From positions 11,511-75,510 of the IMG/VR virus record IMGVR_UViG_3300030060_002841: a DNA stretch of 64,000 nucleotides, one strand, 5' to 3'. The notes under the pieces were generated by a model, which saw nothing but the letters and a program-made list of their open reading frames with translations, made no database searches and was not told the origin of the DNA. Origin of the DNA: a virus. Below are positions 4,130 to 64,000 of this stretch, piece by piece. The position numbers were made by a program, and so were the translations under genes. How positions within the stretch are numbered: position 1 is the first letter of the stretch; every line of letters begins with the position of its first letter.

Positions 4130-4236
4130 ACTTAGCTATATACTAGCATAAATTTAAAATTTTAAAAAAATTTTTTAGGTTTATTAAAAATATTATATTT
4201 ATATTATATATGTATAACTATTAAAACCAATTTGTT

Positions 4237-46800: not shown

Positions 46801-49800
46801 ATCTGCAGGAGCAATGAAAGATTTTGTACTTCAAGATGAAAATGGAAAACCTATATTAGGTGAAGATGGTAATCCTATAAAGATAAAAGATCCAAACTCT
46901 CCAACAGGATTTAGACAAGTACCAGAAAATCAAAGAGATTTTATATTAGGTGGATATAATAAGCGTCCTGCTTATATGGCAAAACTTAAAGTACCCGTAT
47001 TATCCTATTTAAGATTTTTAGCTGAACAAAATAATGAGACTTTAGAAAATGATAACATAGATGATACTTTAAAAAAGTTAGTTGACTATGGACACTTAGG
47101 AAGTAGAGTTGGAGATTATTATATGGCTACAGAGATTTTATCTGATCCTAATACATTATTAATGACATCTTATAAGATTGCTGAAGTAATGAATAAGCAA
47201 TATAATAGATATAAGAATTCTCACTATAGAAGAGTAAAGCAATTTGTAAGTACACAAGAAAGACATGAGTTTTTAAAAGATTTAGCTAGAATAGGTGTAT
47301 ATCCAGATCCAGAACAAGTAAAAAACTTTTTATCTAAAAAGCAAGAAGATCTTACTATAGATGATATTCCAGATATGTTCTATACTGAAGAGGGTTTAAT
47401 TACAATGGAAGAAGATCCTGCAATGTTTGCAGAAGTAAGACAGATTGTTAAAAAGATGGAGCTAATTATAGAACCAGAACAAAAACCTAAAAAAGAAGAT
47501 ACACAGAAAGAAGAAACTGATCCTGAAAAACAAGTTGTTAATGTAAATCCAATCAATACTGAAACACCAGAAGAAGAAAAAGAGGTTAAAGAAACTCTTG
47601 TTAAGCTTGATGAATTTAAAAAAAATGATAAAGGAACTAAAATAATTTTAGATAGAGAATGGGAAAAAGTAAGACAACAGAAGTTTAGAGAAACAGGAGA
47701 GTTTCCAACTGAAAGTGATAAGAAACAATGGTTAGCCGATGGTAGTAAACAAGGGGGTTTAAGATATTTAGATGCTAGATGGAGAGCATTTAAATTATAT
47801 GAAAGCTCTCCTATGGAAGAGAAGCTTGGACCAGATAAAAAATTATTAAGTTTTGATGAATGGTTAGAACAAAATATTAGAGACAATAGAATTGCTAGAG
47901 ACATATCATCTAAATTAGGCTTAGGTGTTTATGATATACTTCCTAGAATAGTAACAGATCAAAAAACAAAATTAAACAACCTAGAAATAGATGGAGCTAA
48001 AATTATAAAAGCTTTTCCAAATCTTAATATGTATATTGTTGAGGTTCCAGGTAGACTTAATGAAGATGGTCCTGATGCAATAAAGAACTACCAACTTGTA
48101 GATATAGATAATAACTTTATAACAAGAAAGTATTCTGCAATAAGAATGCAACATCCTGATTTAAACTGGCGTGCTTCTTATCCTAATGCTGCTGAAGCTA
48201 TTTCTGCTGCAAAAGATATAGCAAAGGTATTACCTAGTTCTGAGGTTTTTAACTTTGATAATCAAGAATATAAGACTGGTGATATTGTTGTTGATACTAA
48301 TGGCAACAGGTGGTATATAGCATCTAATATAGCACAGGTTGATTCTGATGGTTATATTACTATAAAGGCAGTTGATTCAAAGAAAAGCAATAACAATAAG
48401 TTATTTAGTAAAATATTACCGGGAGATTGGGTAAATAAAAAATGGAAAAAAGAAAATATAAAAGAGGATAGATGGGATTTTGATTTGATTGAAGGTAACA
48501 TATCAAAGTTATCTAGAACAGAACCTTTAAACTTTTTTACTAATCCTAACTACAATAGGAAGATGCTTACAAAAAAGCAACTTCAAAAAATGTTAAATAA
48601 GCTATCAGCAAAAGATAAAGCTAAATTAAAAGTTCAAGTTAGTCTTAATCCTGCTTATGCTTCAGATAGTAAATTGAAGATAGAAGAGCGTGTTAATGCT
48701 TTTGCTAGATCAACAAACCAAACAGACATTAAAACTAATAAGTTATTAAAAAAGGCTGAACCAAAATATATTATTAGAATGGTTATGCCTGATGGTAGCT
48801 TTATACAATTGCAAGGAATAGATACTAAATTTGTAGATCCTAATAATGAAAAGGTTGAAATCACTCCTTTATCAATGAGTAGAGATCAATACTTAAAATA
48901 TTTTTATCCACCTAAACCAACAACTAATCAATCATTAGATGAAGCATATTTAGATACATTAAGAAGTTACGCAGCAACACAATTAATATATCAAGCTTTA
49001 GGTGATGCAATGGCATTTCTTAAACCAACTGATTCACAAATAACTTTAAATTTATTTGATAAAGAAAAGTTAGCTAAACAAGTTGAAAGTCAATATAGAG
49101 ATCCAGAAGGTAATCTTAAGAAAGATCAGCTATCTTTAAATTTATTAAAAAGACTTAATAAAATTCAAGGTATACTACGTCCTGGTGGAATGGATTGGTA
49201 TAAACCAAATGGTGAAAAGTATGAAACTCCTTTTGATAAGCTTGAACAAAAGTATATAACTGAGATTAATGGAGAGGGTAAGTATTATATTATTGATAAT
49301 AATAAAGGCACTGTAATACATAATTTTGATTTAACTGTACCAGAAGAAAAAACTGCGCTTACTGAGTTTCAACAATCATTTCAAAAAAGTAAATATAAAA
49401 ATGCTTTAGATAATTTAGGAAGGTATGTTCTTGTTATTCAACAAGCTAATGGTATAATAAGTTTAGCTGAATTAAAAGCAAGTGAGCTTGTTTATGAGGA
49501 TCAAGAATCTATATTAGCTGATCTTATAGCTTTACAACAAAAGACAAATAAATCACAAAAAGAAGGTGGTAATATTAAATATGTAAAGGGTAAAAAGACT
49601 GCAGTAGATCCATCATTTAATTTTAGAGAAAATGATAACTTAAATAGTAGATTTTATATTTCTGGAAAAAGTGGTGATATACTTAATATAAATGTAGGAC
49701 CACTAGGAGGTATAATAGTAAAATATACAAGAGATAAAGGTCTTGATACAGAAAGAACTGACATAGTTAGTATTACAGAAGAGCAATTAAAAGAAAGTAA

Positions 49801-52800
49801 GATAACTTATTTTTCAGACTTTTTAAGTCTTGTTAATAGTAAATGGAGTGAGAAACAGCAGAAAAAACAAGAGCAAGACAAAGATTATAAACCATTACAA
49901 TTAATAGATGAAAAAGGTTTAACCACAGATAAGTTTCGTACTGGTATACCAATGTATGCAGATGAAACTATAGTAGACAAAACAGTTGCTAAGATTTCTC
50001 CAGATTTAAGAAAACCTTCACTTGGTTTAAATTGGAGTGATATAGAAGGTTTAGATTTACTTATACAACAAGCACAAGAAATAAATGAACCTAATAATGT
50101 AGACCAATCTGATAATCAAAGACAAGAGGTAGAGCAAGATACAGTTCTTATTGATGCTGCATATGTTGATAAATATACAGACAAATGGCAGACAGTACCT
50201 AAACGAGATCTAGAACTACTAGCTGCAAAAGGTGGTGCAAATCCTGCAGATAATTTAACTGATTTAGAAAAAATTGTTTATGATAATACAGGAATAGCTC
50301 AAAAAATAAAAGATGGTGAAATTGTTATAACAGAGCAGTTTAACATTAACAATGATACTATAACGCAAACTGAAGGAGATGCTTTACAGATTGAAGATAA
50401 AATACAACGTAAGACATCTGAGATTAATAACTATAAAAGAAATAAATCTCAACAGATAGCAGATGATATACAAAAGAAAAGTACTTATACAGATGTAAAT
50501 GGTACATCAATTAATCTTGATGGTATGGATCAAGCAAGTAAGTCTTTGTTGATGGTTAATGAGTTAAATGCATTTGAGCAAAGAGGTGATGCTACATTAA
50601 ATAATTTACAAGCAGAGTTAAATGAATTAAAGAAAGAAGCTAAAAGAGTTGCAAAAGATGATCCACAATTTTCTGTTGTAGATCCTAAACAGTTAGATGA
50701 AAAACAAGTAGAAGATATAGATAAATTTATATCATTTATAAAGAGAGTTTTTCCTCCTGGTGTAATAACTGTATCAGATATAAATGATTTAAAGGCTAGT
50801 TTAAAAAATAATGGAGTAACATTAGGAGCTTTTGTTATGTCATTAGAACAGTTAGCTGGTGGTATAAAACAGTATCAAGGAAAAATATATACATCTGAAA
50901 CTTCTCCTGATAAGTATCATGAAGCTTTTCATGCAGTATTTAGATTGTTATTACCTGATGCACAAATAACAGAACTATTAAATATTGCAAGGAGAGATGT
51001 TAGAAAAGAACTTAGACAACAAGGTATAAGTTTGAAAGAAGCTTTAGCTAAGTTTCAATTAAAGTCTCCTATATATGCACAATTAAAAGGTAAAGAGTTA
51101 GAAGAAAGATTTTATGAAGAGTGGTTAGCTGATAAGTTTGAAGACTTTAAGATGAATCCTGGAGCTACTAAAGTACCTTCTGTAGCTAAAAGTTTTTTCC
51201 AAAAGATTATAGACTTTATAGTAGAGTTATTTACTAGAGCTGACAGAAATCAATTAGTAAATATATTTGAAGACATTGATGCTGGTAAGTTTAGCACTAC
51301 TCCTGGTGTTAACAGTAATACTTTTACAAGAAGGTTGGATCAAAAATTAGCTAGAGGAGAAGGTGTTGCATTTGATCAGGGTGTTAGTGTATCAGATGAT
51401 ATAACTTTTAGTATACAATTAAAAACAGGAGAGGTAGCATTATATGAAAATTATTATGATGATCAAAAACAAGGATGGAAAAAAAGACTAGTTGATAAAG
51501 ATGTTTATATGAATGCTGCTGATGTTAATACATTAATCAATAACATAGGTGCTTTATATTTAGATAGATTTATGAGAGTTAAGGGTGAGTTTTTTCCACC
51601 TGCAATGATTAGAGCAACAGTTACAGATTATATAGAGATGTATAATCCTAGAAGAAAGTTTTATGCAGATGATCCTAATGTAGCAAACTATGTAGTAAAA
51701 CTTAATACAAAGTATAATAGTTTATTGCAAAACCAGTCTGAGATAGAAGATGGTGTTACTAAGTATTTAGAGCTGTTTGATATGAAGATTAACATGGAAG
51801 ATCTTGATATTAATGCTGATTATCAAAATGAATATGATGATTTATTTGATCAAAATGGAATACCAAAAGAAGGTAATTGGGAAGCAGAACCCCAAGGTAT
51901 TGGAGGTTTTAGATCTTTAAGTAAAGCATTGCGTATATTTATTGCAACAACAACTTTACCTGATACAGATTCATTTCAAAATCCTAATGAGATACCAACT
52001 AATATTTACATAAATGATGATATGCAAGAAAGGCATATGGTTAGTGTTAACTATGTAGATGCTTATAATGGGTTATTAAGAGCTGTTAAGAATTCTAAGA
52101 GTGAAATGGAGATGTTGCAAAAAATGGTAATGTTTAAAGATACTAGCACTCATGCTGCTGCTGTTATAGATAAGTTCTTTAGAAAGATGGGTATAGCTGA
52201 TCCTCAAGCATTATTACAAGAAGAAGCTGATTTTCCAATAGCAGAAGTTGAGGCTACTGATCCAGTATTTTTTAACCAAGTAATAAAAGGATTAAATCAA
52301 TATGTGGTAGACTATCTGTTTATAGAAAAGTCTGGTAAAGGAAGTGACACACAACAAGGTACAATAAGCATATATGAAGCTAATACTAAAGATGACGCTC
52401 ATGAGCAAATTAAAAGATGGCAAAATGTTTATTTAACTAAAGCTCAAAACTTAAGAGATCCTTTAAATTCAAAAGATAGAATTGAAGCTGCTACAGTTAT
52501 TAATGAATTTAAAAGTTATTTAAGCACAACTAGAAAAGCTATTAATGATAATGATACCTACTCTAATGGAGAAGTATCAAAGATTGGTGTTGATACTATT
52601 TCAAAAAATTTATCATTAGATATATTTAAACATACAGGTATAAAGCTTAGTGCTGGTTATATAAGATTTAGCATTATAAATAATATTAATGAAAACTTAA
52701 TAAGAACAGGTTCAAATAAAAAATTATCTAACAAGCAAAGATTAATACTTGCTAGTAATGAAACGTCAGAGCCAATAACACTTGCAGATTTAGAAAACTT

Positions 52801-55800
52801 TGAAGGTTCTATAAGTAAAGGAGAAGATTTATTTGCTAGAATAAATAATGACACAGCAGACCAAATTACTGCTAAAGAAGATATACCTTTAAATAGAGCA
52901 CAAAGAAAAGTGGTTAAACCAGAGAATGTAGGTATTGAAGCAAGATTAAAGAAGTTTGCAAGAGGTAATGCTTTATTTGATGAAACTGTTGGAACTACAG
53001 TATTTAGAGATCCAGAAGGTAATCTTATATACTCTCACCAAATGCCAACCTTTCATTTAGAAAAAGTTGCAGAATTAAATAGTGAAGAAAAAATAAATGG
53101 GTTATTAGAAGATGGATACTTGAGCAAGAATGCGTTATTAAATGACCCTAGGTTTTTAGCTTTATCTAGATCTGGTAATCTTAGAGTACTTAGATTATCA
53201 GGATCAAAAGAATCAGCAGTAAAGAAAGATGAGGTTAGTGGTAAGTTTTATGGTTCAGGTAAAGGTGCTGGTGTAACATATGGTGACTCAACACCATCTG
53301 ATTTTATTTCTTCTTTGATTAATTTATATCTGCATGATTATAATCCTATAAATGGAAAGGTTTCTAAAAGAACTTATATAGATGAAAATAATGATGTTCA
53401 GGATTTTGTTACCGCACCTTCATTGTTAAGAGTAATTGAGGCTGCTAATACAGGAGACTTTGTTGCATTACCAGTACGTAAGACTGTTGAGTATAATGCT
53501 TCTGATAAAACATCTAAGATTACAGATGAAACATTAGAATACTTTATAGAAGAGTTAAGAACATCTTATGACACTATAAGACAAAATGTTGCAGAGCTAA
53601 ATAACCCAAGTGATGCAAGTAGAACTAGTACAGTATATAACGGATATAATGATATTATTTCATTAGATGAAATCCAAGATTATGAATTAAAAGAAGATGG
53701 AACAAAAGATCTTACTAAGCCAATTGAAGATAAACAAAGAGGTTTTAAATTAGGATCTGCTGGTAGATATATTATTGTAGACAAACAACTTGAAGATGGA
53801 AGTATAGAAAAAAATAGATTAGTTCACGATAAATTACAAGACTTAGCTAGACAAGGTGACGTTTCATTTGACAATGCAATAAAACAAGTATTTAAAAACA
53901 CTGATGTACTTAAAACTGCTATAGAGAGAAGATTAGAAGCTGATTTTACAGAGTTTAATGATATATTGTTTGATTTAGGTGTGTTAAATATAGCGGAAAA
54001 AGGAGGAGCTATAGAAGTGTCAATGATAAGTACTGGTTTTCAAAGTGGTTTAGTAGATGTTAATGGACAATCTACAGAAGATGTTAAAGCCTCAATGGTT
54101 GCTTTAAATCTTGAAAGCAATTTAAATCACAATTTAAAACAAGTATTTTTAAATGATCTTATAAATACAAGATCTATTAATCAAGTTTTATTAGGCAATC
54201 AAGCTATTAGTTTAAAAAATGCTATTGATGCTATTAAAAGAGCTAAAGGTCAAAATGGTGCAGGCCCTTCAGTTAAAAGTATAATAGGCTGGAAGAAGTA
54301 TGGTATAAATGCATTTAGTGAGTTAGATGGATTCTTTCATGATGATCCTACACATTTATCAGAGTTTACAGTAGGCACAAAATTATTAGGTGAAGAAATA
54401 ACAGAAGATACTATAAATCAAATTACAATGCAACCTGATAATGTAGCTAAAATACTTTCAGGAGAAAAAACTACTACATTAAGAAGAAAAAAATTTCCAA
54501 GTGGAGTGTATAATATTGGTGGACAATTATTTAGTTTATCTAATAGAGGAAACTTAACAGTAGAAGAAGCAGGTGGTGTAGAAGCTATAACTAAATCAGA
54601 AGCATTTGCAGAAACAGGTCCTAAATTTTCATCAACAAAAAAATGGCTTAAAGGAGAAGGAAAACTATATGTGTATGATATTGCACCTGTTAGTAAAACT
54701 ATTACTGAAGCTGGTCAAGAAATAGATCCTAATGATACTCAAGACTCTATGGATGCCATGGTGCATATAACATTAAATGGCTTTAAGCATACTGAGTTTG
54801 GTATAGGACAATTAAATGAATCACAAGCAGATATGATTCAAACAATGGAGGGTGAGGGTGCTGCTGTTAACTATAGAGGTGGTAGAGATTCAACTAATAA
54901 TGAATGGTTTGGTGATCCAAACTTTAATACTAGAGGGCAGAAGGATAGGGATGCTGCAATTAATTCTAGAAAGTATGTATATTTTGATGGTAAGACAATG
55001 GGTAAAATGTCTGTTGTAACATTAATACCTTCTTATACATCTTTAAGAAACCCTGATACTGGTGAATATGATAGACCAAGACCGGGTCATGAAAAGTTAC
55101 ATAACTTAAGAATAAAATTAGAAGCTCATGAAGCAAAGACTGGAAGAATAGCAATGTCATTTCCAAAGTCAGCTTCTAAGATGATGAATATGTTTTTAGC
55201 TAATGCTGAAACAGCTTTTGATAGTACACCAATAACCTCAGAGAATGGTACACAAAATTGGAGACCTAGAGTTTTAGATGCGAGTATGTTAAGGCTACAA
55301 CAGGTTACACCTTCAGGAAAAACTGTAGTTGTAGATCCTAGACAAATAAAAATGCTCATAACCAGTGAGCAAAATTTAAATGCTGAGGTAACAATACCTT
55401 GGTTAAATGGAGGTAAGCCAACAAGAATAGGAGATGTTATATCTGAATATGACAAACTAGTTGGTGGTAGAATGGCAAGAAAGTTTGCAGATAAAAGAAA
55501 CTTATTATTTGAGTTTAAAGAAAAGTTTGGAAAGCAGACATATGCAAGCATGCTATTGCGTAAAGTAGAAAAATTAAAAGCTGAAGATATAAATGTTGAT
55601 ATGACAACATTCTTAAAGTATGCTGTTGCTGGTTTAGAAGCAGGTAAAACAAAAGATCAATTAACTGCATTCTTTAAGCCAGATGCTAATGGTAAGGCAA
55701 GAAATTTAAATAATCCGCTTACATTTAAACAGTTTCAAACATTATACTTTTCATATTGGAAAGATGTATTAGGTGAAAGACAACCCGGTGTATCTTTAAC

Positions 55801-58800
55801 ACTAAGATCATCTGTTGGAACTAAACAACTTAAACGTGCTGGTAAAATTGATAAAGAAACAGGTCAGCCTATACCAGGACTAGCTAGTGTAATAACATAT
55901 GCTGAGCAAGATCAAATGCAAAAAAATGGAGAGCTGTCTGCTATCCTTAACAATATGACAGATGATCAAAAACAATATGTAGATAAAACTGGTAATCAAG
56001 AGTTTTTACAAGAGAACGGTAGAGTTAATCCTATATATGACAGTAGAGATCAATTGTTTAGAAAAGGCTCTATAAAAGAAGGGGATTACTACTATGATGA
56101 TTTAAGATATGATATAGATGAATATAAAGACGGAAAGAAAACAGGCCAAACTTATTCTGAGTTTATGATGCCACCTCACTTTCAATCTATATTGGAAAAC
56201 TGGAAACCTGGTACACCAATACCTGATGCTATTGCTAAAGCTTTTGGTATACGTATTCCTACACAAGATAAGCATTCAGCTATTAATTTAAAAGTTGTAA
56301 ACTTTATGCCTTTGGTTTTAGGATCACAAGGTATATTTCCAAGACAACTTATTGAAGTATCTGGAGCTGACTTTGATATTGATACATTATATACTCAAAT
56401 TAAAGAGCACTTTGTACAAAAAAGAGTTATAAAAACTGCAGAACAAATAGAAGCAGAGTTTCAAGAGTGGGCAAGCACAGAGTCATATTCACCTGAAGTA
56501 GAGAGAGCTACAAACGGTGAGAGAACTACATTAAATAGAATGGAAACATTTGGAGAAAAGTTTGATGAACACAGAGCAAGAGCTGAGTTTGCTGCCATAG
56601 AAGAGAATAACTATCCTATAAAAGTAAGAAAGAAACAAGTTGTTACTGAAGCTACAGTGGATAAATCAAAGAGTCTATCAGATTTAAAAGATATGATAGA
56701 TAGAAAAGAAACGCAAGTTGAGGTTCAATTTAAAGATTTGACTGAAGGTACAATAAAAGAATACGGAGATGCTAGTACAATAGAAGAAGAATATTCTCAG
56801 TATTTAAGATACATGTTAAAAGAAGCATCTACACCAGGTTCAGCTATGAGTTTGTCAATAGATAAATTTTTAGATAAGAATTTACAATACCTTAAAGGTG
56901 ATGGTACTATTTCTAAAGAAGAGTTTAGAAAACAACAGTTTGATTTTGTTAAACAACAAAGAGATTTATTATCATTAGTAAATCAAAATTCTTTAGTATC
57001 AGAAATTAATGATTTATATAGTGTAAGTAAAATTTTAAATGCAGCATTAGAACAATTAAAGCTACCAACAACACTTAAAGAATATAAGGAATGGAAGACG
57101 GATCAGAATGGTAATGACAATGTTGGAGGTAATACACCATTTAGTGCACCATACAGCAATAAACTTTTAGATGTTAAGTTTGCAATGCTTGGTAATAATG
57201 GAATGAAAGATATTAAAAATGAGCCAGCTGTAACAACACCACTAGAAGAATATTTATCTGATATAGAAAAAGAACTACCTGAGTTTTATGAATTAATAAA
57301 AGAAGCGGGTGTTGATGTAGATAGCTTGTTTGGTAAAACTGTTTCATTCAAAGCCAATAAAGAAGGTGCAAGAAATATTGGAGGTGTGGTTGTAAAAAAT
57401 AGTGCTGTTAGTTTCTTATCTCAACATAATGTAAGTTTAAGAGTTGTAAAAAAACCTAACGGTGAAGTAGTTGTTGATCATAGAATAGTGTTTAATGATC
57501 AAACATTCTCTGAGTTTAATCAAAATTTAACAACTAAAGGTGTAAGAACTCAATATGTTATATCAGCTTTAATTACTGCAATGACAGATAATGCTAAATT
57601 AAGATTAGCAGATAAACTTGGTTTAAATAGAAATGCGCTAGGTGTAGTAACCTCAATGATAGCATTAGGTATGGATACACGTACAGCACTTGATACAATT
57701 AATCAACCTCTTGTAAAAGAAATATATAAAGATGTTGCTGCAGGTGCACCTCTTAGTATAACTTTAGGACAGTATATAATGGATATGAGCTTAGCTATAC
57801 AAGAGAAAAAAGAAAACTTAGCTTCAAGAACATCTCCAGAAGCAGCTGATAAAGCTGAAAAAGAGTTAATGATTAATTTAAAAACAAAAGGTTTAAGTCC
57901 TGAAAGCTTAAGAAAAAATCTAGAAGTATTTAGTAAAGCAGATAAAAAAATTAATTCACCTATACAACCTGAATTCTTAGAAACTTTAACTCTAGATGAG
58001 ACTGTAAATGCTTATGGTGGTCTTATATTATTTTCTAAGGGTTACAATGTATCTAAATATATTGGTAACATGGCATCCTTAACAACATTGTTAGAAGGTT
58101 TTGGTAGAGACTTGACGGATCTAGAGGATAGAGATATTTCTTTTGGTAAGTTGGGTTTATTAGATGCTTTAGATAAAAATGCTCCTTTTGATATAAGACA
58201 TTTAATACTAAACAAAAAAGATTTTGATGAGGCTAAGTTGCAGTATGGTTCAATACAGAAACAAAAAGAAACAATATTAAGCCATTATTATTATGCAAAC
58301 AAAGAGTTTAAACAACTTTTACCTAAAGTATTCTTAGCCTATACAGCACCTTTTAATTTAATTAATAGACATATACTTAGGAATTATACAAATAGCTCTT
58401 TTGTTATGGATGGTGCAGAGTTACAAAAGATTAATACTGAGACAATTAGTTATTTAATGTTAAAGGCTTATCAGCATCAGTTGTCTAATGACGTAAGAAT
58501 AGCAGGATCATTAAGTAATGGTATAATGTATGATCAGGTAGAAGGAAAAGAATTAACTAAATATGTTAAAGAATTAAAAGATATTCTTGAAAAGAAAAAT
58601 AAAAGAAATAACTTTATTGATGATTTCTTGTATGTTATGGATACAAAAAATTCAGAAAATAAGAAAGGATATGTCAGAGGTATTTCTAATACATGGATTA
58701 CAGTAGGAGAAATGCAGCAGATATTTAATCAAAATAGTTTCTTAGAATTATTTAGTGATGATGACACAAGACACTATGCTTATGATTTAATGCATTACTT

Positions 58801-60298
58801 ATTAGTAAAAGATGGAATGCAGTGGCAAGTTGATACATTTATAGATTCTATACCTGTTCAAATTTTTGATGGTCCATTAGCAGCTGTAAATAAAGTACAT
58901 GAAGTATTTGCTGAAATAAATAGTTATGAAGATTTACAAAATGCAGATGATAAAATAAAAAGTATTTTTGGTGTAGATTTTAAAACTTTAGTTACAGATA
59001 TGGAATCATCTTTTATAGCATCAAGAGGTAATTATAGATTAGTTAAATTAAAAAAACCAAAAGCTAAAAATATTAAAGCACCTACTGCAATTAAAGACAA
59101 TAGAATGGTTATTAATCTACTTGCTGGTGTTGCACCATTACAAGAGTATACTGATTTAGAAGGAGAAGTTGTTAGAAAAGTTAAGTCAGATCAAAAAATT
59201 AGTACTGATATATTAGAAGAAACAGGTGAAATTGCTGAAAAATTTAAAGCTAATATAAATTATATTTCTAATATGGGATTAAAATATAATCCTGCAAAAG
59301 TTGTAGAAAAATCAGGTGCAAGATCTGTAGTAAAAGAATATCCAATGTATGATTTTCCTATTATTGTAAAGAGGTCTATAAAAAGTTATAATCCGCAGTT
59401 AGGAAAAAACACATACAAAGAAAAGATATACTATTTAGAGAAAGTATATAATCCATTTTTAGAAAGTAACTCTAATGATCTTTATGATTTAGCTTCTAGT
59501 GATGCTAATGTATCTACAACAAGGGGTGTTAGAGCTGATTATGTAGAATTACAAAGTGGACTTTTAGGGACACCTGATCAGTTTGTACATGGTCATATGT
59601 TTGGTCCTCAAGTAGCTGAGAAAGATTTAAGAACAAATAAAAAATCTGTTAGCTCTAGTACACCAAATAATGAAATGTCTGAAGCTGAAAGAAAAAGCTA
59701 TGAAGAATCTCTTAAGAAACAGGTAGAAGAAATGGATGCAAGAGAAAGATCACAATACAATCCAGACTCAATGCAGAAAATAAATATTACAGATGGTGGT
59801 CCAAATAATACTGATGTAAACGTTACTAACTCAGAAGGTAAAACAGATAATCCAGCAAATATGACTTTAGAACAAAAAGGATTTAGACAAGAAGGTACTA
59901 AGCAAGAAGAATATATTCCAGAAGCAGAAGAAGCAGATAGGTTAGCTAATGAAAAATTAGGAGAGCAGGCAGAAGAGAAAGGTGGTGGAGCAATCAACAT
60001 CTTTGATGCTCTTAAAGATGATGAATCAACTACTATAAGTAATGAATTGAATGAAACTAAAAAAGGTAAGGTTGATTATTGGACAAAAGGTGCTAGAGTT
60101 ATAGCTGAATGGTGGGATACATTAACAGAAAAACAAAAAATAAAAGTTGTTGAGAAAGGTAACTTTAAGTCAGGACATCAAAGTTTCTTTAAATTTTATG
60201 ATGAGGTGTACAATGATTTAAAGGGTGGTCCGTTAGAAGGTTTAAATACAAAACAATCAGGTGAAGCAGTTGTAAAACAATTAACATGCTTACTTTAA
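43886..60298 (+). CDS. Giant virion RNA polymerase polyprotein (crAss-like, 5470 residues)
   Basis: One frame of 16.4 kb. The beta-prime-like centre has RIPTQDKHSAINLKVVNFMP (from R4123) and SGADFDIDTLY (DFDID at 4162-4166). The 39-residue spacing compares with 35 between R425 and D460 in E. coli RpoC, and the three Asp would bind catalytic magnesium. Upstream, GRIAMSFPKSASKMM (3753-3767) resembles the beta-like barrel with conserved Lys. Further known-type segments are KEGARNIGGVVVKNSAV and TDNAKLRLADKL (near 4566). Extra modules: N-terminal hydrophobic helices (about 295-330 and 671-690), a zincin site HEAFH (2345-2349) with EEWLADKF about 65 residues later, and an ASCH-like segment (about 3505-3610). 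The C-terminal 250 residues are disordered. It would be packaged, ejected unfolded and transcribe early genes. It may be cut into subunits. Confidence 0.85.
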   Translation: MAEENVNINNEELTNSNLDLKDSDPVVNPTSTQEPINPLLNLPNDAIVNNQPVINSADLPTATREAKDFTLPNLDVPSTTDYAYPQLTQSSLQDAISEMETDGYFQNAYGTGQITPATLQAIQEVEAPINQYLYSDYANTSSPRPSRGYIDDDPYGQMTGDYDYDSDLGLAQGFENALYQSILDTPKEKAPGLKPPVVFGARAYNLDRYMAHPKFSDLGFHPFRDNEEYYNDGRTTRFQNGRRTFNAFWDMFFTSAGGNYRSAKDVAGGDFLGSDMIGAQSMEDAMRIASSTRGGLGGWINDFMLNSAYTFGTIASIVAEEAALAAALYGTKSPAVAKTAAVRTGVNLRRLMKALPAMFDMRKAAAASQKILNQMKNINLAKDWRKAAMLTGTGAINGFKRVGGFLAPQTSLAMKRWATAANTGENISSLAKGADHVAAFYRDLRMINLALAEGKMEGGMVEMRVREDLYNAFEEKYGVAPTEDQMNFINNQAVTAAANTTLFNTPVIFASNAIVLRNMFGGFRPLNELLEETAQGAGRRIYRNPNFKPGKKVLNKEGKEIGEDAWFYSDSFFGHMNQLRKMGFKKGWGKHLGAAALRYTGANWMEGFQEVYQEAVAAGMEQYYAGMYEDPIATGLDITAAGILEPQIGGKAAIRDAAMKGISSQMSGQGASVFMSGFLMGGLLGPTTKFLFQGIPNGFKYITDRDAYKQYQADKKQYIQDVVKTLNDIYADPEFYTNPTKLNAIIQKQLSHRMATSTIANDTQEFQDARHQSMYNDIYTAISLGKFKDMKEYFQDFAKMSDEDIKGAFADSKKSPEKIRQGFEKGIKKLEEVKEQYDKFDDKYRNPFDPSKYKKGTRVYQEEVIRQNAYHQAKMLLLFQKDAMKDATTRMNQIQNELISGNGALANVKHNDIFVLTSRKRMTSEIDRLSKLIEFTKADTPELKAQKEGYKKRLKHLEDIYKVLFDPKNQVRSAGAMKDFVLQDENGKPILGEDGNPIKIKDPNSPTGFRQVPENQRDFILGGYNKRPAYMAKLKVPVLSYLRFLAEQNNETLENDNIDDTLKKLVDYGHLGSRVGDYYMATEILSDPNTLLMTSYKIAEVMNKQYNRYKNSHYRRVKQFVSTQERHEFLKDLARIGVYPDPEQVKNFLSKKQEDLTIDDIPDMFYTEEGLITMEEDPAMFAEVRQIVKKMELIIEPEQKPKKEDTQKEETDPEKQVVNVNPINTETPEEEKEVKETLVKLDEFKKNDKGTKIILDREWEKVRQQKFRETGEFPTESDKKQWLADGSKQGGLRYLDARWRAFKLYESSPMEEKLGPDKKLLSFDEWLEQNIRDNRIARDISSKLGLGVYDILPRIVTDQKTKLNNLEIDGAKIIKAFPNLNMYIVEVPGRLNEDGPDAIKNYQLVDIDNNFITRKYSAIRMQHPDLNWRASYPNAAEAISAAKDIAKVLPSSEVFNFDNQEYKTGDIVVDTNGNRWYIASNIAQVDSDGYITIKAVDSKKSNNNKLFSKILPGDWVNKKWKKENIKEDRWDFDLIEGNISKLSRTEPLNFFTNPNYNRKMLTKKQLQKMLNKLSAKDKAKLKVQVSLNPAYASDSKLKIEERVNAFARSTNQTDIKTNKLLKKAEPKYIIRMVMPDGSFIQLQGIDTKFVDPNNEKVEITPLSMSRDQYLKYFYPPKPTTNQSLDEAYLDTLRSYAATQLIYQALGDAMAFLKPTDSQITLNLFDKEKLAKQVESQYRDPEGNLKKDQLSLNLLKRLNKIQGILRPGGMDWYKPNGEKYETPFDKLEQKYITEINGEGKYYIIDNNKGTVIHNFDLTVPEEKTALTEFQQSFQKSKYKNALDNLGRYVLVIQQANGIISLAELKASELVYEDQESILADLIALQQKTNKSQKEGGNIKYVKGKKTAVDPSFNFRENDNLNSRFYISGKSGDILNINVGPLGGIIVKYTRDKGLDTERTDIVSITEEQLKESKITYFSDFLSLVNSKWSEKQQKKQEQDKDYKPLQLIDEKGLTTDKFRTGIPMYADETIVDKTVAKISPDLRKPSLGLNWSDIEGLDLLIQQAQEINEPNNVDQSDNQRQEVEQDTVLIDAAYVDKYTDKWQTVPKRDLELLAAKGGANPADNLTDLEKIVYDNTGIAQKIKDGEIVITEQFNINNDTITQTEGDALQIEDKIQRKTSEINNYKRNKSQQIADDIQKKSTYTDVNGTSINLDGMDQASKSLLMVNELNAFEQRGDATLNNLQAELNELKKEAKRVAKDDPQFSVVDPKQLDEKQVEDIDKFISFIKRVFPPGVITVSDINDLKASLKNNGVTLGAFVMSLEQLAGGIKQYQGKIYTSETSPDKYHEAFHAVFRLLLPDAQITELLNIARRDVRKELRQQGISLKEALAKFQLKSPIYAQLKGKELEERFYEEWLADKFEDFKMNPGATKVPSVAKSFFQKIIDFIVELFTRADRNQLVNIFEDIDAGKFSTTPGVNSNTFTRRLDQKLARGEGVAFDQGVSVSDDITFSIQLKTGEVALYENYYDDQKQGWKKRLVDKDVYMNAADVNTLINNIGALYLDRFMRVKGEFFPPAMIRATVTDYIEMYNPRRKFYADDPNVANYVVKLNTKYNSLLQNQSEIEDGVTKYLELFDMKINMEDLDINADYQNEYDDLFDQNGIPKEGNWEAEPQGIGGFRSLSKALRIFIATTTLPDTDSFQNPNEIPTNIYINDDMQERHMVSVNYVDAYNGLLRAVKNSKSEMEMLQKMVMFKDTSTHAAAVIDKFFRKMGIADPQALLQEEADFPIAEVEATDPVFFNQVIKGLNQYVVDYLFIEKSGKGSDTQQGTISIYEANTKDDAHEQIKRWQNVYLTKAQNLRDPLNSKDRIEAATVINEFKSYLSTTRKAINDNDTYSNGEVSKIGVDTISKNLSLDIFKHTGIKLSAGYIRFSIINNINENLIRTGSNKKLSNKQRLILASNETSEPITLADLENFEGSISKGEDLFARINNDTADQITAKEDIPLNRAQRKVVKPENVGIEARLKKFARGNALFDETVGTTVFRDPEGNLIYSHQMPTFHLEKVAELNSEEKINGLLEDGYLSKNALLNDPRFLALSRSGNLRVLRLSGSKESAVKKDEVSGKFYGSGKGAGVTYGDSTPSDFISSLINLYLHDYNPINGKVSKRTYIDENNDVQDFVTAPSLLRVIEAANTGDFVALPVRKTVEYNASDKTSKITDETLEYFIEELRTSYDTIRQNVAELNNPSDASRTSTVYNGYNDIISLDEIQDYELKEDGTKDLTKPIEDKQRGFKLGSAGRYIIVDKQLEDGSIEKNRLVHDKLQDLARQGDVSFDNAIKQVFKNTDVLKTAIERRLEADFTEFNDILFDLGVLNIAEKGGAIEVSMISTGFQSGLVDVNGQSTEDVKASMVALNLESNLNHNLKQVFLNDLINTRSINQVLLGNQAISLKNAIDAIKRAKGQNGAGPSVKSIIGWKKYGINAFSELDGFFHDDPTHLSEFTVGTKLLGEEITEDTINQITMQPDNVAKILSGEKTTTLRRKKFPSGVYNIGGQLFSLSNRGNLTVEEAGGVEAITKSEAFAETGPKFSSTKKWLKGEGKLYVYDIAPVSKTITEAGQEIDPNDTQDSMDAMVHITLNGFKHTEFGIGQLNESQADMIQTMEGEGAAVNYRGGRDSTNNEWFGDPNFNTRGQKDRDAAINSRKYVYFDGKTMGKMSVVTLIPSYTSLRNPDTGEYDRPRPGHEKLHNLRIKLEAHEAKTGRIAMSFPKSASKMMNMFLANAETAFDSTPITSENGTQNWRPRVLDASMLRLQQVTPSGKTVVVDPRQIKMLITSEQNLNAEVTIPWLNGGKPTRIGDVISEYDKLVGGRMARKFADKRNLLFEFKEKFGKQTYASMLLRKVEKLKAEDINVDMTTFLKYAVAGLEAGKTKDQLTAFFKPDANGKARNLNNPLTFKQFQTLYFSYWKDVLGERQPGVSLTLRSSVGTKQLKRAGKIDKETGQPIPGLASVITYAEQDQMQKNGELSAILNNMTDDQKQYVDKTGNQEFLQENGRVNPIYDSRDQLFRKGSIKEGDYYYDDLRYDIDEYKDGKKTGQTYSEFMMPPHFQSILENWKPGTPIPDAIAKAFGIRIPTQDKHSAINLKVVNFMPLVLGSQGIFPRQLIEVSGADFDIDTLYTQIKEHFVQKRVIKTAEQIEAEFQEWASTESYSPEVERATNGERTTLNRMETFGEKFDEHRARAEFAAIEENNYPIKVRKKQVVTEATVDKSKSLSDLKDMIDRKETQVEVQFKDLTEGTIKEYGDASTIEEEYSQYLRYMLKEASTPGSAMSLSIDKFLDKNLQYLKGDGTISKEEFRKQQFDFVKQQRDLLSLVNQNSLVSEINDLYSVSKILNAALEQLKLPTTLKEYKEWKTDQNGNDNVGGNTPFSAPYSNKLLDVKFAMLGNNGMKDIKNEPAVTTPLEEYLSDIEKELPEFYELIKEAGVDVDSLFGKTVSFKANKEGARNIGGVVVKNSAVSFLSQHNVSLRVVKKPNGEVVVDHRIVFNDQTFSEFNQNLTTKGVRTQYVISALITAMTDNAKLRLADKLGLNRNALGVVTSMIALGMDTRTALDTINQPLVKEIYKDVAAGAPLSITLGQYIMDMSLAIQEKKENLASRTSPEAADKAEKELMINLKTKGLSPESLRKNLEVFSKADKKINSPIQPEFLETLTLDETVNAYGGLILFSKGYNVSKYIGNMASLTTLLEGFGRDLTDLEDRDISFGKLGLLDALDKNAPFDIRHLILNKKDFDEAKLQYGSIQKQKETILSHYYYANKEFKQLLPKVFLAYTAPFNLINRHILRNYTNSSFVMDGAELQKINTETISYLMLKAYQHQLSNDVRIAGSLSNGIMYDQVEGKELTKYVKELKDILEKKNKRNNFIDDFLYVMDTKNSENKKGYVRGISNTWITVGEMQQIFNQNSFLELFSDDDTRHYAYDLMHYLLVKDGMQWQVDTFIDSIPVQIFDGPLAAVNKVHEVFAEINSYEDLQNADDKIKSIFGVDFKTLVTDMESSFIASRGNYRLVKLKKPKAKNIKAPTAIKDNRMVINLLAGVAPLQEYTDLEGEVVRKVKSDQKISTDILEETGEIAEKFKANINYISNMGLKYNPAKVVEKSGARSVVKEYPMYDFPIIVKRSIKSYNPQLGKNTYKEKIYYLEKVYNPFLESNSNDLYDLASSDANVSTTRGVRADYVELQSGLLGTPDQFVHGHMFGPQVAEKDLRTNKKSVSSSTPNNEMSEAERKSYEESLKKQVEEMDARERSQYNPDSMQKINITDGGPNNTDVNVTNSEGKTDNPANMTLEQKGFRQEGTKQEEYIPEAEEADRLANEKLGEQAEEKGGGAINIFDALKDDESTTISNELNETKKGKVDYWTKGARVIAEWWDTLTEKQKIKVVEKGNFKSGHQSFFKFYDEVYNDLKGGPLEGLNTKQSGEAVVKQLTCLL
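54400..54715 (+). other. ASCH-like segment within the virion RNA polymerase
   Basis: Residues about 3505-3610. The pattern is QPDNVAKILSGEKTTTLRRK (GEKTTTLR at 3526-3533), FPSGVYNIGGQLFSLSNRG, then KLYVYDIA, which fits the PUA-like ASCH fold with its G-x-K-T-x-T-x-R signature. It lies between the zincin site and the beta-like barrel. Function is unknown; ASCH domains are generally linked to RNA. Confidence 0.45.
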
Positions 60299-60308
60299 AA
60301 ACTAAAAT

Positions 60309-63300
60309 ATGAGTTGTTATAATAAAAATACAAATGAATATAAAGCATTAAGAGACGCTTTAAAGAGTGATATTGCTGTAGATGTAACTATAGATGCTTG
60401 GCAAAAGATGAATAATTCAGATATTATTCCTAGTGTAGATCAAGTAAATCTTATGAAAGAAAGAATGAATCAACAGTTTTCTCTTGAGACTAAGGAGTTT
60501 GCAGATATACTCATGGCAAATTTATCTAGATCTAAAATTATTAATAAATATAAAAATACTTATTGGGTTAATAGTAGTGCTAAAAAAGGGTTTGCTTGGG
60601 CTAAGTATGATGAAAGAGTTTTAAATGACAACATAAAAAGATTACAGTCAAGATTAAATATGTGGGGTATACCACAGAATGCTGTTACGTTTAAACAAGT
60701 TCAAAAATATAATAAAGAAGAAAATCAGTTTCAAACTTTGGTTACTGTTCAGTTTAACAGAAATGCAATTGGACCAAATGATTTACTATTAAAAGATAGA
60801 GATAAGGACATGACTCACATTGGTCCTATACTAGATCACCTAAAGTCTGTTTTTCCACAGGTTAAGGTAACGGTTATGGATGTTGCTAGTGCAAAGAATT
60901 TACATGATAGATTAACAGCAGGATATAAAAAAAGACCTGCATTTAAAGATGTAAAGAGTTTTTATTATAACGGACAAGCTGTATTAATAAAAGGTAGAGT
61001 TACATCTGAAACTGCAATAGAAGAAGTATTGCACCCTTTTATTAACCATCTTGCAGCTGATAAACCCCAGCTGTATGATAAATTAGCAAATGAAGCTGCA
61101 AGAAACTTTCCATTATTAACACAACAGATAAATGATGCTTATAGTGATAGAAGAGGTTTTAATAATGAAGACAGAAAATTAGAACTTGTAACACAATCAT
61201 TAAGTAGACATTTTAAGAGAGAGTATGAATCTACTCCAACACAAAGTTGGAAAGACAGTGTAATGAATTTATTAAAGTGGCTTTCAGAATATATTAAAGA
61301 TATATACAACTACATAACTAATGGTCAATTGACCTTATCACCAGGTATGATTAATGACAGAGCAACATTAACAGATATTGCTAAGCTGTTGAATACAGGT
61401 GATATGTCATTTAAGTTAAATCTTGATCCATCACTTAATACTAATAAGATACAATACAAACTAAGTGATGACAAACAAGCTCTTATAAATAAAATATTAA
61501 AGAAAGGTACAGCAGAACAAAAAGCTGTTGTAGCAAGATTGACAAATGATATTGTAAAAGATAGTAAAACATATGATGAGATATCAGCTAATCCTTTTGA
61601 TCCAGATATTAAAACAGGTTTGGTATATATAAATTCTGAAACACATACTTATGCAGATGCTAAGGGTAGACCTTATGCTTCTACTACAGAAAAAATAAAA
61701 GGTAAGTTAGATTCAAACGAGTTTCAGTTTAATATAGATATAGGTAATGATTTTGATGCTGTATTAGAAGAGGTTGTCTTAGGTAAAACTTGGGAGCAGT
61801 CTAAAGATGTATATAATTATGATCGTATATCAGAAGAACAAATGAAATACATACACACAGGTTTAGCTGCTTATACTTCAGCATTAATAGCAGATGGCTC
61901 TATTCTTTTACCGCAAGTAATAGTAAGTGATCCTGATACTATGATTGCAGGAACAATTGATCTATTGCTTATAAGAAAGGATGGATCTGTTCAAGTTATA
62001 GATTTAAAGACTAGTAAGAATAGTGTTCTTAGACCTTATTATTTTGGTAAAGGTAAAGGTAGTTCAAAAAAAGCACAAGGATTATTTCCGGTGAAAGAAG
62101 GAAGTGTATTTTATGATCCTAATAAACCATACTATATGTCTACTGCTACTCAACACAGTATGCAAGTTAATGTATATAGAAGAATGTTGTATAACATGGG
62201 TTATACATTAGACTCTACCAGTGATGCAGATAATACACCATTTACAATACATTTAAAAGTAGATATAAAAGAAAAAGATGGTAAGAAAATATATATGGGA
62301 TTTACATATGAAAAAATGCAACCCCATCCTATTAGTGCTAATAAAGAAAAAGTTGATAAGGTTGTTCCTTATAGTGTTGATGTAGAGGCAAAAAATAAAC
62401 TTAAAGAAAAATTTAAAAAGGGATCTAATTATAGTTATGTAAATGATCCTGAGTTTACAGAAGCAGCTGAATCATTACCGGAGTCAGAATTAATACAAAC
62501 AAGAACTTATGAGAATATTTATGATTCACTAACTGAGTTTGTTTCTAAGTTACTTACTAGAAGACAAGCAATTGAAAGGATGAAAAATTCTGCTAAGCTT
62601 ATTAATAGTAAAGAAGAAGTTTTACAAAATATAGATTATACTATCTCTGCAATAAACACTGCATTAAGAAGTGGGCAGGCTGATATTGTTTTTACAGAGG
62701 TTTTACAAAAAACACTAGAAGATATAGAAGAGTTTGAAGCTTATATTAATGATGATGCAAATGCATCTAAACCAGAATACATATCTAAAATAAATAATTT
62801 TCAAGGTTTAGTTGATTCAATGAGAGGTTTAGCAGGATTAAAAGAAACAGAAGGTTTAAGTCCTAGACAAAATAAACTTATAGTTAAGCTACAAGGTAAA
62901 CTAAACGATCTTAACGGTGTTACAACTGAAGGTGGTTCTTTGGTTAAGCCTGGTATAATTAGTGATAAAATAAATTTATATGTTGCCAAGTTAGTTCAAA
63001 ATGAATCTAATAGAAATTTTACAATGGATGATCTAATAGGTGAGGATGGATTATTAAAGTTTGGAAAAGATATAGGTTATATTGCTAGCTATGGTATGGA
63101 TCTAGCAACACAGTCTGATACTCTTTTACAGTTAATGGATAAGATATATAAAAGACAAAGGCAAATTTTATTTGATAAAGTAGATGAAAGGAACAGAGAA
63201 ATAAGAAGGGTTACAACTAAACTTGCCTATCTATCTAAAGATAAAAATAAAATTGATTATTCTTTTATGTTGGTATATAAGAATGGAAATTTTACAGGCA

Positions 63301-64000
63301 GGTATGTGCAAAGAACTGGGGCTAATTATTATAATAAAATAGATGAACTAAGAGAACCTTTATATGATGAGGAAGGTGTATGGAAAGAGTATATATATAA
63401 TGCAAACGGTAGATATACTGATACAGAGATAAAATATAATAAAGAATTGTTTGAAGCTAGAAAAGAATATAGAACATACTTGCAAGCAGAAAAATACAAT
63501 GTAGATACAGGTCAGTTAGATAGTGGTGAGTTTCATGAATATGATCAAGAATATATAGATGCTAGAGATACGCATGAAGTTTTTGTACCATTTGCTAATG
63601 GAAAAGGTGGTAGATGGCAAAAGAAAGACACAATAACTGATCAAGAATATGAAAGATTTCTAGTAAAGTATAAAGAGGTTAAAGATTATAAGCAAGCTTT
63701 ATATGATAACAATAATGAGTTTAGTGGTAGAGTTGAGCCTCAGTCAGACTTTTTTGTAAAGAGAAAGTATGTTAGGGTTAAGAATCAATCTACTAGTGGT
63801 GTTGATTTAGTTGATCCTAAGTATAGAGCTTTGATGATGAAAGATACAGCACAAATGACAGAGTTAGAAAAAGCTCAAAAAGAATTTTATGAAATGTATA
63901 TTAAGTTTTTTGAGAATGATCTTCTTAAAAAATTACCTCCAGGTATAATGGATGCTATGCAAGGAAGAGTGCCTGTTATAAGAGATACAATGACTAGTTC
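60309..64000 (+). CDS. Second giant virion-type protein with PD-(D/E)XK nuclease, 3' partial
   Basis: It starts with ATG 10 bases after the polymerase stop (MSCYNKNTNEYKALRDALKS) and stays open to the window end, over 1230 residues. Residues about 540-625 carry a full RecB/Cas4-type PD-(D/E)XK signature: GTIDLL (D551), VIDLKTS (D565 and K567) and QVNVY (Q619, Y623). This predicts a metal-dependent DNase. Near residue 238, EEVLHPFINHLA is a degenerate zincin motif with Glu in place of the first His, followed by helices like those after HEAFH in the polymerase. The rest is long charged helix. It is likely co-packaged and ejected with the polymerase, and may degrade host or competitor DNA or process phage DNA. 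The C-terminal half is outside the window. Confidence 0.7.
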   Translation, partial: MSCYNKNTNEYKALRDALKSDIAVDVTIDAWQKMNNSDIIPSVDQVNLMKERMNQQFSLETKEFADILMANLSRSKIINKYKNTYWVNSSAKKGFAWAKYDERVLNDNIKRLQSRLNMWGIPQNAVTFKQVQKYNKEENQFQTLVTVQFNRNAIGPNDLLLKDRDKDMTHIGPILDHLKSVFPQVKVTVMDVASAKNLHDRLTAGYKKRPAFKDVKSFYYNGQAVLIKGRVTSETAIEEVLHPFINHLAADKPQLYDKLANEAARNFPLLTQQINDAYSDRRGFNNEDRKLELVTQSLSRHFKREYESTPTQSWKDSVMNLLKWLSEYIKDIYNYITNGQLTLSPGMINDRATLTDIAKLLNTGDMSFKLNLDPSLNTNKIQYKLSDDKQALINKILKKGTAEQKAVVARLTNDIVKDSKTYDEISANPFDPDIKTGLVYINSETHTYADAKGRPYASTTEKIKGKLDSNEFQFNIDIGNDFDAVLEEVVLGKTWEQSKDVYNYDRISEEQMKYIHTGLAAYTSALIADGSILLPQVIVSDPDTMIAGTIDLLLIRKDGSVQVIDLKTSKNSVLRPYYFGKGKGSSKKAQGLFPVKEGSVFYDPNKPYYMSTATQHSMQVNVYRRMLYNMGYTLDSTSDADNTPFTIHLKVDIKEKDGKKIYMGFTYEKMQPHPISANKEKVDKVVPYSVDVEAKNKLKEKFKKGSNYSYVNDPEFTEAAESLPESELIQTRTYENIYDSLTEFVSKLLTRRQAIERMKNSAKLINSKEEVLQNIDYTISAINTALRSGQADIVFTEVLQKTLEDIEEFEAYINDDANASKPEYISKINNFQGLVDSMRGLAGLKETEGLSPRQNKLIVKLQGKLNDLNGVTTEGGSLVKPGIISDKINLYVAKLVQNESNRNFTMDDLIGEDGLLKFGKDIGYIASYGMDLATQSDTLLQLMDKIYKRQRQILFDKVDERNREIRRVTTKLAYLSKDKNKIDYSFMLVYKNGNFTGRYVQRTGANYYNKIDELREPLYDEEGVWKEYIYNANGRYTDTEIKYNKELFEARKEYRTYLQAEKYNVDTGQLDSGEFHEYDQEYIDARDTHEVFVPFANGKGGRWQKKDTITDQEYERFLVKYKEVKDYKQALYDNNNEFSGRVEPQSDFFVKRKYVRVKNQSTSGVDLVDPKYRALMMKDTAQMTELEKAQKEFYEMYIKFFENDLLKKLPPGIMDAMQGRVPVIRDTMTS

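What the first reader, a model, noticed from the sequence alone, without database searches (positions are those of the whole stretch)
56252..56383. RpoC-like active-site stretch in a single-chain 5470-residue virion polymerase
RIPTQDKHSAINLKVV to SGADFDIDTLY aligns by pattern with the RpoC stretch RAPTLHR to NADFDGD, including spacing (39 versus 35 residues). The DxDxD reads DFDID, so the usual Gly is Ile, as I recall for some crAss-like polymerases. Having both barrel-like parts in one chain with at least two extra domains makes this an informative variant for how crAss polymerases are built.
Basis: partly seen in the sequence, partly recalled or inferred. Interest (0 to 1): 0.7.

Follow-up and report, generated by a model that had tools for sequence, protein, structure and literature searches.

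The report
crAss-like virion polymerase with roaming domain
The stretch is the catalytic centre of a giant, probably virus-injected RNA polymerase of a known type (crAss-like phages); the less expected part is that this protein also holds a peptidase domain and a small RNA-enzyme-like (ASCH) domain that a nearly identical phage lacks and that turns up at different places in related phage polymerases.

Summary
R4123 to DFDID (4162-4166) lies in one intact 5470-residue ORF, and the family is a genuine two-barrel virion RNA polymerase (vRNAP) of the phi14:2 gp66 / crAss001 gp50 kind. Profile E-values are 8e-36 and 1e-48 against shuffled or reversed controls of at least 0.27. A predicted fold has the gp66 structure 6VR4 as the only significant PDB match (E 1.5e-17). 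DFDID and the 39-residue spacing are the same in gp66, and two barrels in one chain are already known, so those points are not new.

Zincin and vRNAP in one chain of about 4300-5700 residues is the rule in this environmental clade; elsewhere they are adjacent genes. (2) About 110 residues (3499-3610) form a YqfB-like ASCH domain. A 98%-identical sibling lacks it, and a 95%-identical (nucleotide) copy sits in the C-tail of a vRNAP only about 31% identical. Nearly all its viral relatives lie in giant transcription-block proteins, at varying positions. I read it as a mobile injected effector domain carried by the polymerase. Packaging, peptidase activity and ASCH activity are inferred.

The parts
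43886..60298 (+). Single ORF, 5470 aa: giant virion-RNA-polymerase polypeptide
   Evidence: ATG ORF, no stops; family profile matches gp66, crAss001 gp50 and other crAss-like RNAPs
44975..46789 (+). N-terminal module, residues 364-968, shared with a 1552-aa protein of Leptolyngbya phage Lbo-JY46 and (residues 608-806) with the protein encoded just upstream of the RNAP in Dulem virus 41
   Evidence: blastp 22% over 627 aa, E 4e-9; Dulem_a E 0.003
50732..51295 (+). Zincin-type metallopeptidase region (residues about 2283-2470; HEAFHAVFR at 2345, EEWLAD downstream)
   Evidence: HE[AG]FH present by selection in all 58 representatives; EExxA[DE] downstream in 56 of 58; matches the C-terminal region of the Dulem protein (E 3e-4); the Carjivirus counterpart is annotated as fused to a zincin protease. 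Fold not tested
54382..54716 (+). Inserted ASCH-like domain (residues about 3499-3610; core 3511-3603), putative active-site residues K3528, T3531, R3533, possibly E3572
   Evidence: absent from the 98%-identical sibling L001 and from all other representatives at this site; AF2 pLDDT 91.8, leading PDB fold matches are ASCH/YqfB structures; K-x2-T-x-R as in YqfB
54968..55465 (+). Probable beta-like double-psi barrel region (residues about 3695-3860) with invariant K3707 and K3765
   Evidence: invariant in 48 homologues; aligned with crAss001 gp50; barrel assignment by homology and model
56252..56383 (+). The finding: R4123-x-P4125 ... G4160-A-D4162-F-D4164-I-D4166, beta'-like barrel motif
56369..56383 (+). 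DFDID, the putative metal-binding triad D4162, D4164, D4166
   Evidence: identical in phi14:2 gp66 1361-1365
57545..57685 (+). Bridge-helix/trigger-loop-like region (residues about 4554-4600, RTQYVISALITAMTDNAK...), conserved with gp66
   Evidence: invariant R4554, S4560, D4568, K4571 and gp66 alignment; naming is inferred
59603..60298 (+). Variable, probably flexible C-terminal tail (residues about 5240-5470); in relatives this is where ASCH domains most often sit
60309..64000 (+). Next gene, cut by the window end (at least 1230 aa): second transcription-block protein with a PD-(D/E)XK-like stretch, in the position of crAss001 gp49 and phi14:2 gp65
   Evidence: Pfam PDDEXK_1 E 0.008, below cut-off; position as

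Best explanation
The ORF encodes a single-chain two-barrel RNA polymerase of the gp66 type. Three Asp of DFDID bind the catalytic Mg2+ and invariant Lys of the first barrel complete the active centre. By homology it is packaged in the capsid, injected with the DNA and transcribes the first phage genes. The same chain carries, upstream, a virion-protein module and a zincin that most likely processes the giant chain or host targets after injection. An ASCH domain of the YqfB type has recently been inserted, in frame, between conserved elements upstream of the first barrel. Because this domain is sporadic, sits at different places in different vRNAPs and moves between phages, it is most likely an injected RNA/nucleoside-acting effector that uses the vRNAP as its packaging and delivery vehicle, not a part of the transcription mechanism. 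Shown here: homology to gp66, conservation of catalytic residues, fusion, ASCH fold prediction, presence/absence and transfer. Inferred: packaging, catalysis, processing, effector role.
For: RNAP: tblastn to annotated crAss RNAPs; profile E 8e-36 to gp66 and 1e-48 to crAss001 gp50 against at least 0.27 for shuffled or reversed controls; hhalign to gp66 prob 98.9 over 690 columns; invariant K3707, K3765, R4123 and DFDxD in 48 homologues; Foldseek 6VR4 E 1.5e-17. Packaging by homology: gp66 and its neighbours are annotated as virion proteins from MS/MS and crAss001 gp47/49/50 were found in virions (PMC10172136). Fusion: HEAFH 1460-1820 aa upstream of DFDxD in the same ORF in nearly all the family; ORFs of 4285-5718 aa in 44 of 48 contigs; separate adjacent genes in Dulem virus 41 and Carjivirus. 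ASCH: absent in the 98% sibling; 95% nt copy in the L122 C-tail, where portal genes are 80% identical and the vRNAP about 31%; 3 synonymous differences in about 69 synonymous sites; fold match to ZmASCH prob 1.00 and YqfB 0.95; in the 16-locus set most copies share a chain with an RNAP core and the others lie in other giant ORFs of the block or an unassigned one. NADAR, another effector-type domain, also occurs at different ends of vRNAP chains.
Against: No experimental data for this phage. The AF2 model is of moderate overall confidence (pLDDT 70.8, pTM 0.75; TM to 6VR4 0.40, rmsd 14). The PDB sequence search with profile A2 did not report 6VR4, although 6VR4 is in that library; the local unfiltered search did. 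The ASCH match is below the Pfam cut-off by sequence (15.2 against 21.2 bits) and its best Foldseek E-value is 0.012. The zincin fold was not tested. Only about three vRNAPs of the clade carry a clear ASCH.
Confidence: 0.8

Rival explanations
1. The ASCH domain is part of the transcription machine, for example binding nascent RNA or reading modified template bases, and not a separate effector.
For: PUA/ASCH domains bind RNA and modified bases (PMC7641849); it is found in vRNAP chains and neighbouring transcription-block proteins; in L128/L155 it sits between the regions aligned to the two barrels.
Against: Sporadic (clear in about 3 of 49 of this clade), lost or gained between 98%-identical phages, position not conserved, sometimes on a neighbouring protein.
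Confidence: 0.25
2. The ASCH insertion in the window is an assembly chimera.
For: Both records are metagenomic; short repeats (GAAGAAATA / CAAGAAATA) flank it; the 245-kb donor-like contig holds two portal genes, so it is itself a joined or concatemeric assembly.
Against: Exact in-frame insertion of one complete domain; the copy differs from L122 at 16 of 309 positions, so it was not drawn from that contig; no Ns near the sibling junction; an independent clear ASCH exists in the L025 vRNAP tail.
Confidence: 0.08
3. The zincin is the effector that cuts host proteins, or is only needed for encapsidation, and does not process the chain.
For: Iyer et al. 2017 discuss self-processing, host targets and encapsidation; N4 vRNAP, also fused to a zincin, is packaged unprocessed (PMC5512222).
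Against: Conserved across a chain too large to be convenient for ejection; processing is the leading suggestion for polyvalent proteins. No direct evidence either way here.
Confidence: 0.4
4. The motif is a chance pattern or a dead relative of RNA polymerase.
For: No Pfam or PHROG match; no significant direct match to RpoC or RpoB.
Against: Profile, conservation and fold evidence; all catalytic residues kept in 48 homologues.
Confidence: 0.03

Closest known systems
[quoted passage not shown]
   Same: Two barrels in one chain, DFDID, 39-residue spacing from R to D, collinear 690-column profile match
   Different: 2180 aa without a zincin motif or ASCH in the chain; HExxH found only in the neighbouring gp65-position protein
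crAss001 gp50 and the Carjivirus RNAP (4091 aa) with a neighbouring 'RNAP associated protein fused to zincin protease'
   Same: Same RNAP family; in Carjivirus the same gene order, with giant fusions and a zincin already annotated
   Different: Zincin and catalytic core are in separate ORFs there; in the window clade they are one chain; no ASCH found
Phage polyvalent proteins / N4-type vRNAP (Iyer et al. 2017, PMC5512222)
   Same: Giant injected protein combining a polymerase, a zincin and swappable enzyme domains
   Different: N4 vRNAP is of the T7 type, not a two-barrel polymerase; ASCH does not occur in the main text of that paper
P23-45 gp96, tail-tape-fused two-barrel vRNAP (PMC10770324)
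   Same: Two-barrel vRNAP in a chain of about 5000 residues
   Different: Fused to a tail tape measure protein; reported closest to gp64 of the same phage; reads DFDGD
E. coli YqfB (ASCH, N4-acetylcytidine amidohydrolase) and ZmASCH ribonuclease
   Same: Predicted fold; K-x2-T-x-R of YqfB kept, and a Glu at +50 in the copies without the 9-residue deletion
   Different: Embedded in giant virion proteins; substrate unknown; the window copy has the Glu at +41

Membership tests
crAss-like single-chain two-barrel virion RNA polymerase | DxDxD in the beta'-like barrel with the upstream RxP motif | tested here: met
   DFDID at 4162-4166, invariant in 48 homologues
crAss-like single-chain two-barrel virion RNA polymerase | Sequence homology to gp66 across both barrel regions | tested here: met
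   profile E 8e-36; hhalign to gp66 residues 953-1670
crAss-like single-chain two-barrel virion RNA polymerase | Fold like 6VR4 with the Asp in a double-psi barrel loop | tested here: inconclusive
   Foldseek 6VR4 E 1.5e-17, prob 1.0; coordinates of the Asp not inspected
crAss-like single-chain two-barrel virion RNA polymerase | Encoded by a phage with crAss-like structural genes | tested here: met
   TerL, portal and major head protein match PHROG families; portal relatives are Lbo-JY46 and crAss-like phages
crAss-like single-chain two-barrel virion RNA polymerase | Packaged in virions and active early | not testable with these tools
   inferred from gp66 and crAss001 gp47/49/50
Zincin metallopeptidase | HExxH plus a downstream Glu ligand | tested here: met
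   HEAFH and EEWLAD; EExxA[DE] in 56 of 58
Zincin metallopeptidase | Zincin fold / proteolytic activity | not tested
ASCH domain (Pfam PF04266) | Sequence match above the curated cut-off | tested here: not met
   15.2 bits against 21.2; so it is called ASCH-like by fold, not filed as a Pfam member
ASCH domain (Pfam PF04266) | ASCH/PUA-like fold | tested here: met
   AF2 pLDDT 91.8; ZmASCH prob 1.00, YqfB 0.95; E-values 0.012-0.03
YqfB-type amidohydrolase | Lys21-x2-Thr24-x-Arg26 and Glu74 | tested here: inconclusive
   K/T/R aligned; Glu at +50 in eight copies but +41 in window and L122; alignment in that part ambiguous
Polyvalent (injected multidomain effector) protein | Several unrelated enzyme domains in one virion protein, often with a zincin | tested here: inconclusive
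   RNAP, zincin motif and ASCH fold in one ORF; virion location only inferred

The most novel reading that the evidence does not exclude
crAss-like virion RNA polymerases are delivery vehicles for exchangeable counter-defence or host-takeover enzymes: a YqfB-like ASCH domain (and, in other phages, NADAR) hops between phages and between positions in the chain, is injected with the polymerase, freed by the built-in zincin, and acts on host or phage RNA or nucleosides in the first minutes of infection.
Probability: 0.3. Interest if true: 0.75.

Novelty: new variant of a known kind. Interest (0 to 1): 0.48.

Why it matters
The catalytic motif itself only adds a member to a known enzyme family. The architecture adds more. 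In a large uncultivated clade the peptidase and polymerase that are separate genes in gut crAss phages are one chain, so the question of whether giant injected polymerases are cut by their own zincin becomes testable. The ASCH domain is a natural with/without pair in almost identical phages, plus a very recent transfer between divergent polymerases, which is a clean case of effector-domain exchange inside an essential injected enzyme.

Tried and rejected
Direct RpoC/RpoB profile match: not significant. PDB sequence search with the A2 profile: no 6VR4 reported. Pfam and PHROGs on the ORF: nothing reliable; the Spectrin/ELM2 matches are below cut-off. phi17:2 gp058 as a stand-alone ASCH virion protein: rejected, no K-x2-T-x-R and weak score. 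L017, L022, L024 and L067 as clear ASCH carriers: downgraded to degenerate or possible, so the '6 of 48' count overstates clear cases, and the naive chance product printed rests on that count and is not used. A joint ASCH+zincin fold on L126: alignment mixed the two domains, not submitted. The sibling's shorter ORF (5132) as a biological N-terminal truncation: rejected, its assembly has unreadable bases there. ASCH in bacterial genomes by pattern scan: none confirmed, which is a weak negative. csAssE-Sib, phi17:2 and Lbo-JY46: no match to the catalytic core in six frames.

Full report
Observation. The motif is unique in the chain apart from an unrelated DYDYD near the N-terminus and was never produced in 2000 shuffles of the protein. 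R to first Asp is 39 residues in the window, in phi14:2 gp66 and in crAss001 gp50, and 35 in E. coli RpoC.

What it is. tblastn with residues 3900-4500 finds annotated crAss-like RNA polymerases (crAss001 E 8e-8, cr128_1 3e-7) and an unnamed relative in Dulem virus 41 (6e-8); phi14:2 is at 0.06. A six-member alignment recovered at least 476 relatives in viral contigs. A profile of 58 of them from the zincin to the C-terminus matches gp66 at 8e-36 and crAss001 gp50 at 1e-48; shuffled and reversed controls give at best 0.27. The match covers two blocks of gp66, 682-1004 and 1317-1912, and hhalign with the core alignment gives prob 98.9 over gp66 953-1670. Invariant in 48 sequences are K3707, K3765, R4123, P4125 and the DFDxD Asp. 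An AlphaFold2 model of residues 3448-4640 has 6VR4 as its only significant PDB match. The two Lys as beta-barrel catalytic Lys are an inference from conservation and order.

Is it new as a polymerase? No. gp66 is already known to hold two double-psi barrels in one chain (PMC7886860; PMC10770324) and reads DFDID too. Fusions of crAss vRNAPs to large proteins are mentioned in PMC10770324 and annotated in Carjivirus. Direct sequence comparison to RpoC is not significant, so the RpoC analogy is correct in substance but rests on gp66 and fold.

Architecture. Upstream in the same ORF is HEAFHAVFR (residue 2345) with a downstream EEWLAD. The representatives were chosen for having HE[AG]FH; of these 56 of 58 also have the downstream EExxA[DE], and without that selection the motif is in the same ORF in nearly all loci that reach far enough upstream. 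In 44 of 48 contigs the vRNAP frame is 4285-5718 aa. In Dulem virus 41 and Carjivirus the zincin protein and the RNAP are adjacent genes in the same order, so the window clade has the two genes as one. The N-terminus (364-968) resembles a Lbo-JY46 protein. Similar design, with a T7-type polymerase, is known for N4 vRNAP (PMC5512222).

The ASCH insertion. A sibling contig 98% identical over the vRNAP lacks 330 bp that the window has. None of the other representatives has this domain at this site. The segment has 95% nucleotide identity over 310 bp to L122, where it lies in the C-terminal tail of a vRNAP about 31% identical to the window's, while portal genes of these phages are 80% identical. 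Differences are 3 synonymous and 13 nonsynonymous codons, so the transfer is recent. Gain in the window lineage is the simplest reading; a gain followed by loss in the sibling, at the 9-bp repeats, is not excluded. By sequence it is below the Pfam ASCH cut-off, but the predicted fold (pLDDT 91.8) has ZmASCH and YqfB as its leading PDB matches, and the catalytic K-x2-T-x-R of YqfB (PMC6972931) is kept.

Where the domain occurs. Searches with three and ten members gave 10 and 16 loci. Of the larger set 15 loci were examined (L162 is a near-duplicate of L161): 12 lie in a chain that also matches an RNAP core (the L155 chain by its gp66 alignment, the others also by the motif); L149 resembles virion proteins encoded beside the RNAP, L151 resembles the window's downstream protein, and L153 is an unassigned 1534-aa ORF. 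Positions: C-tail (commonest), upstream of the core (L150, L159), between the regions aligned to the two barrels (L155/L128), and upstream of the first barrel (window). In this clade clear copies are in the window, L122 and L025; L017, L022, L024 and L067 are degenerate. A second effector-type domain, NADAR, is above the Pfam cut-off at the C-tail of L156 and L163 vRNAPs and at the N-terminus of the cr126_1 RNAP. These facts favour a passenger effector over a transcription part.

Mechanism. Shown: homology, fusion, conservation, domain gain and transfer. Inferred: packaging (from gp66 and crAss001 virion data), injection, early transcription, zincin processing, and an RNA- or nucleoside-directed role of ASCH.

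Limits. The Asp positions in the model were not inspected; the zincin was not folded; metagenome contigs may be imperfect (the 245-kb contig holds two portals); the pattern-based collection scans miss distant copies; the claim that an ASCH/vRNAP combination is unreported rests on a small set of open papers. The family profile includes the window sequence itself among its 58 members.

Noticed in passing
L156:11069-11641, L163:9443-10000, L015:5615-6304: NADAR domains (Pfam E 5e-12, 2e-13, 4e-15) inside vRNAP chains, at the C-tail in two and at the N-terminus in cr126_1; a second roaming effector-type domain.
   Followed up: partly
G049 (contig of L122), portals at 21574-24324 and 148802-151564: 245-kb record with two portal genes about 81% identical to each other: two related phage genomes in one record, a concatemer or a chimeric assembly.
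   Followed up: partly
window 1361-4129 against 43886-60298, compared with G049: Portal is 78% identical in protein between these phages but the vRNAP only about 31%: the polymerase evolves far faster, or is exchanged.
   Followed up: no
L016 and the whole csAssE-Sib record: No match to the vRNAP catalytic core in any frame, although a 2024 paper (PMC11054128) reports a vRNAP by HHpred; its 2208-aa protein resembles the N-terminal module of L131 instead.
   Followed up: partly
L005 and the whole Lbo-JY46 record: A Leptolyngbya (cyanobacterial) phage has the closest portal in the phage collection (34%) and a relative of the N-terminal module, but no vRNAP core was found.
   Followed up: partly
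L017 (residues about 2595-2678), L022, L024; site near window residues 3243-3346: Weak ASCH-like stretches without the catalytic residues, all at one site: possibly decayed older insertions.
   Followed up: partly
window 19883-28393, 28393-32040, 32097-37562: Further very long ORFs (2836, 1215 and 1821 aa); the 1215-aa one has a weak endolysin match (PHROG E 1e-4). The 1215- and 1821-aa proteins were only PHROG-scanned; the 2836-aa one was not examined.
   Followed up: no
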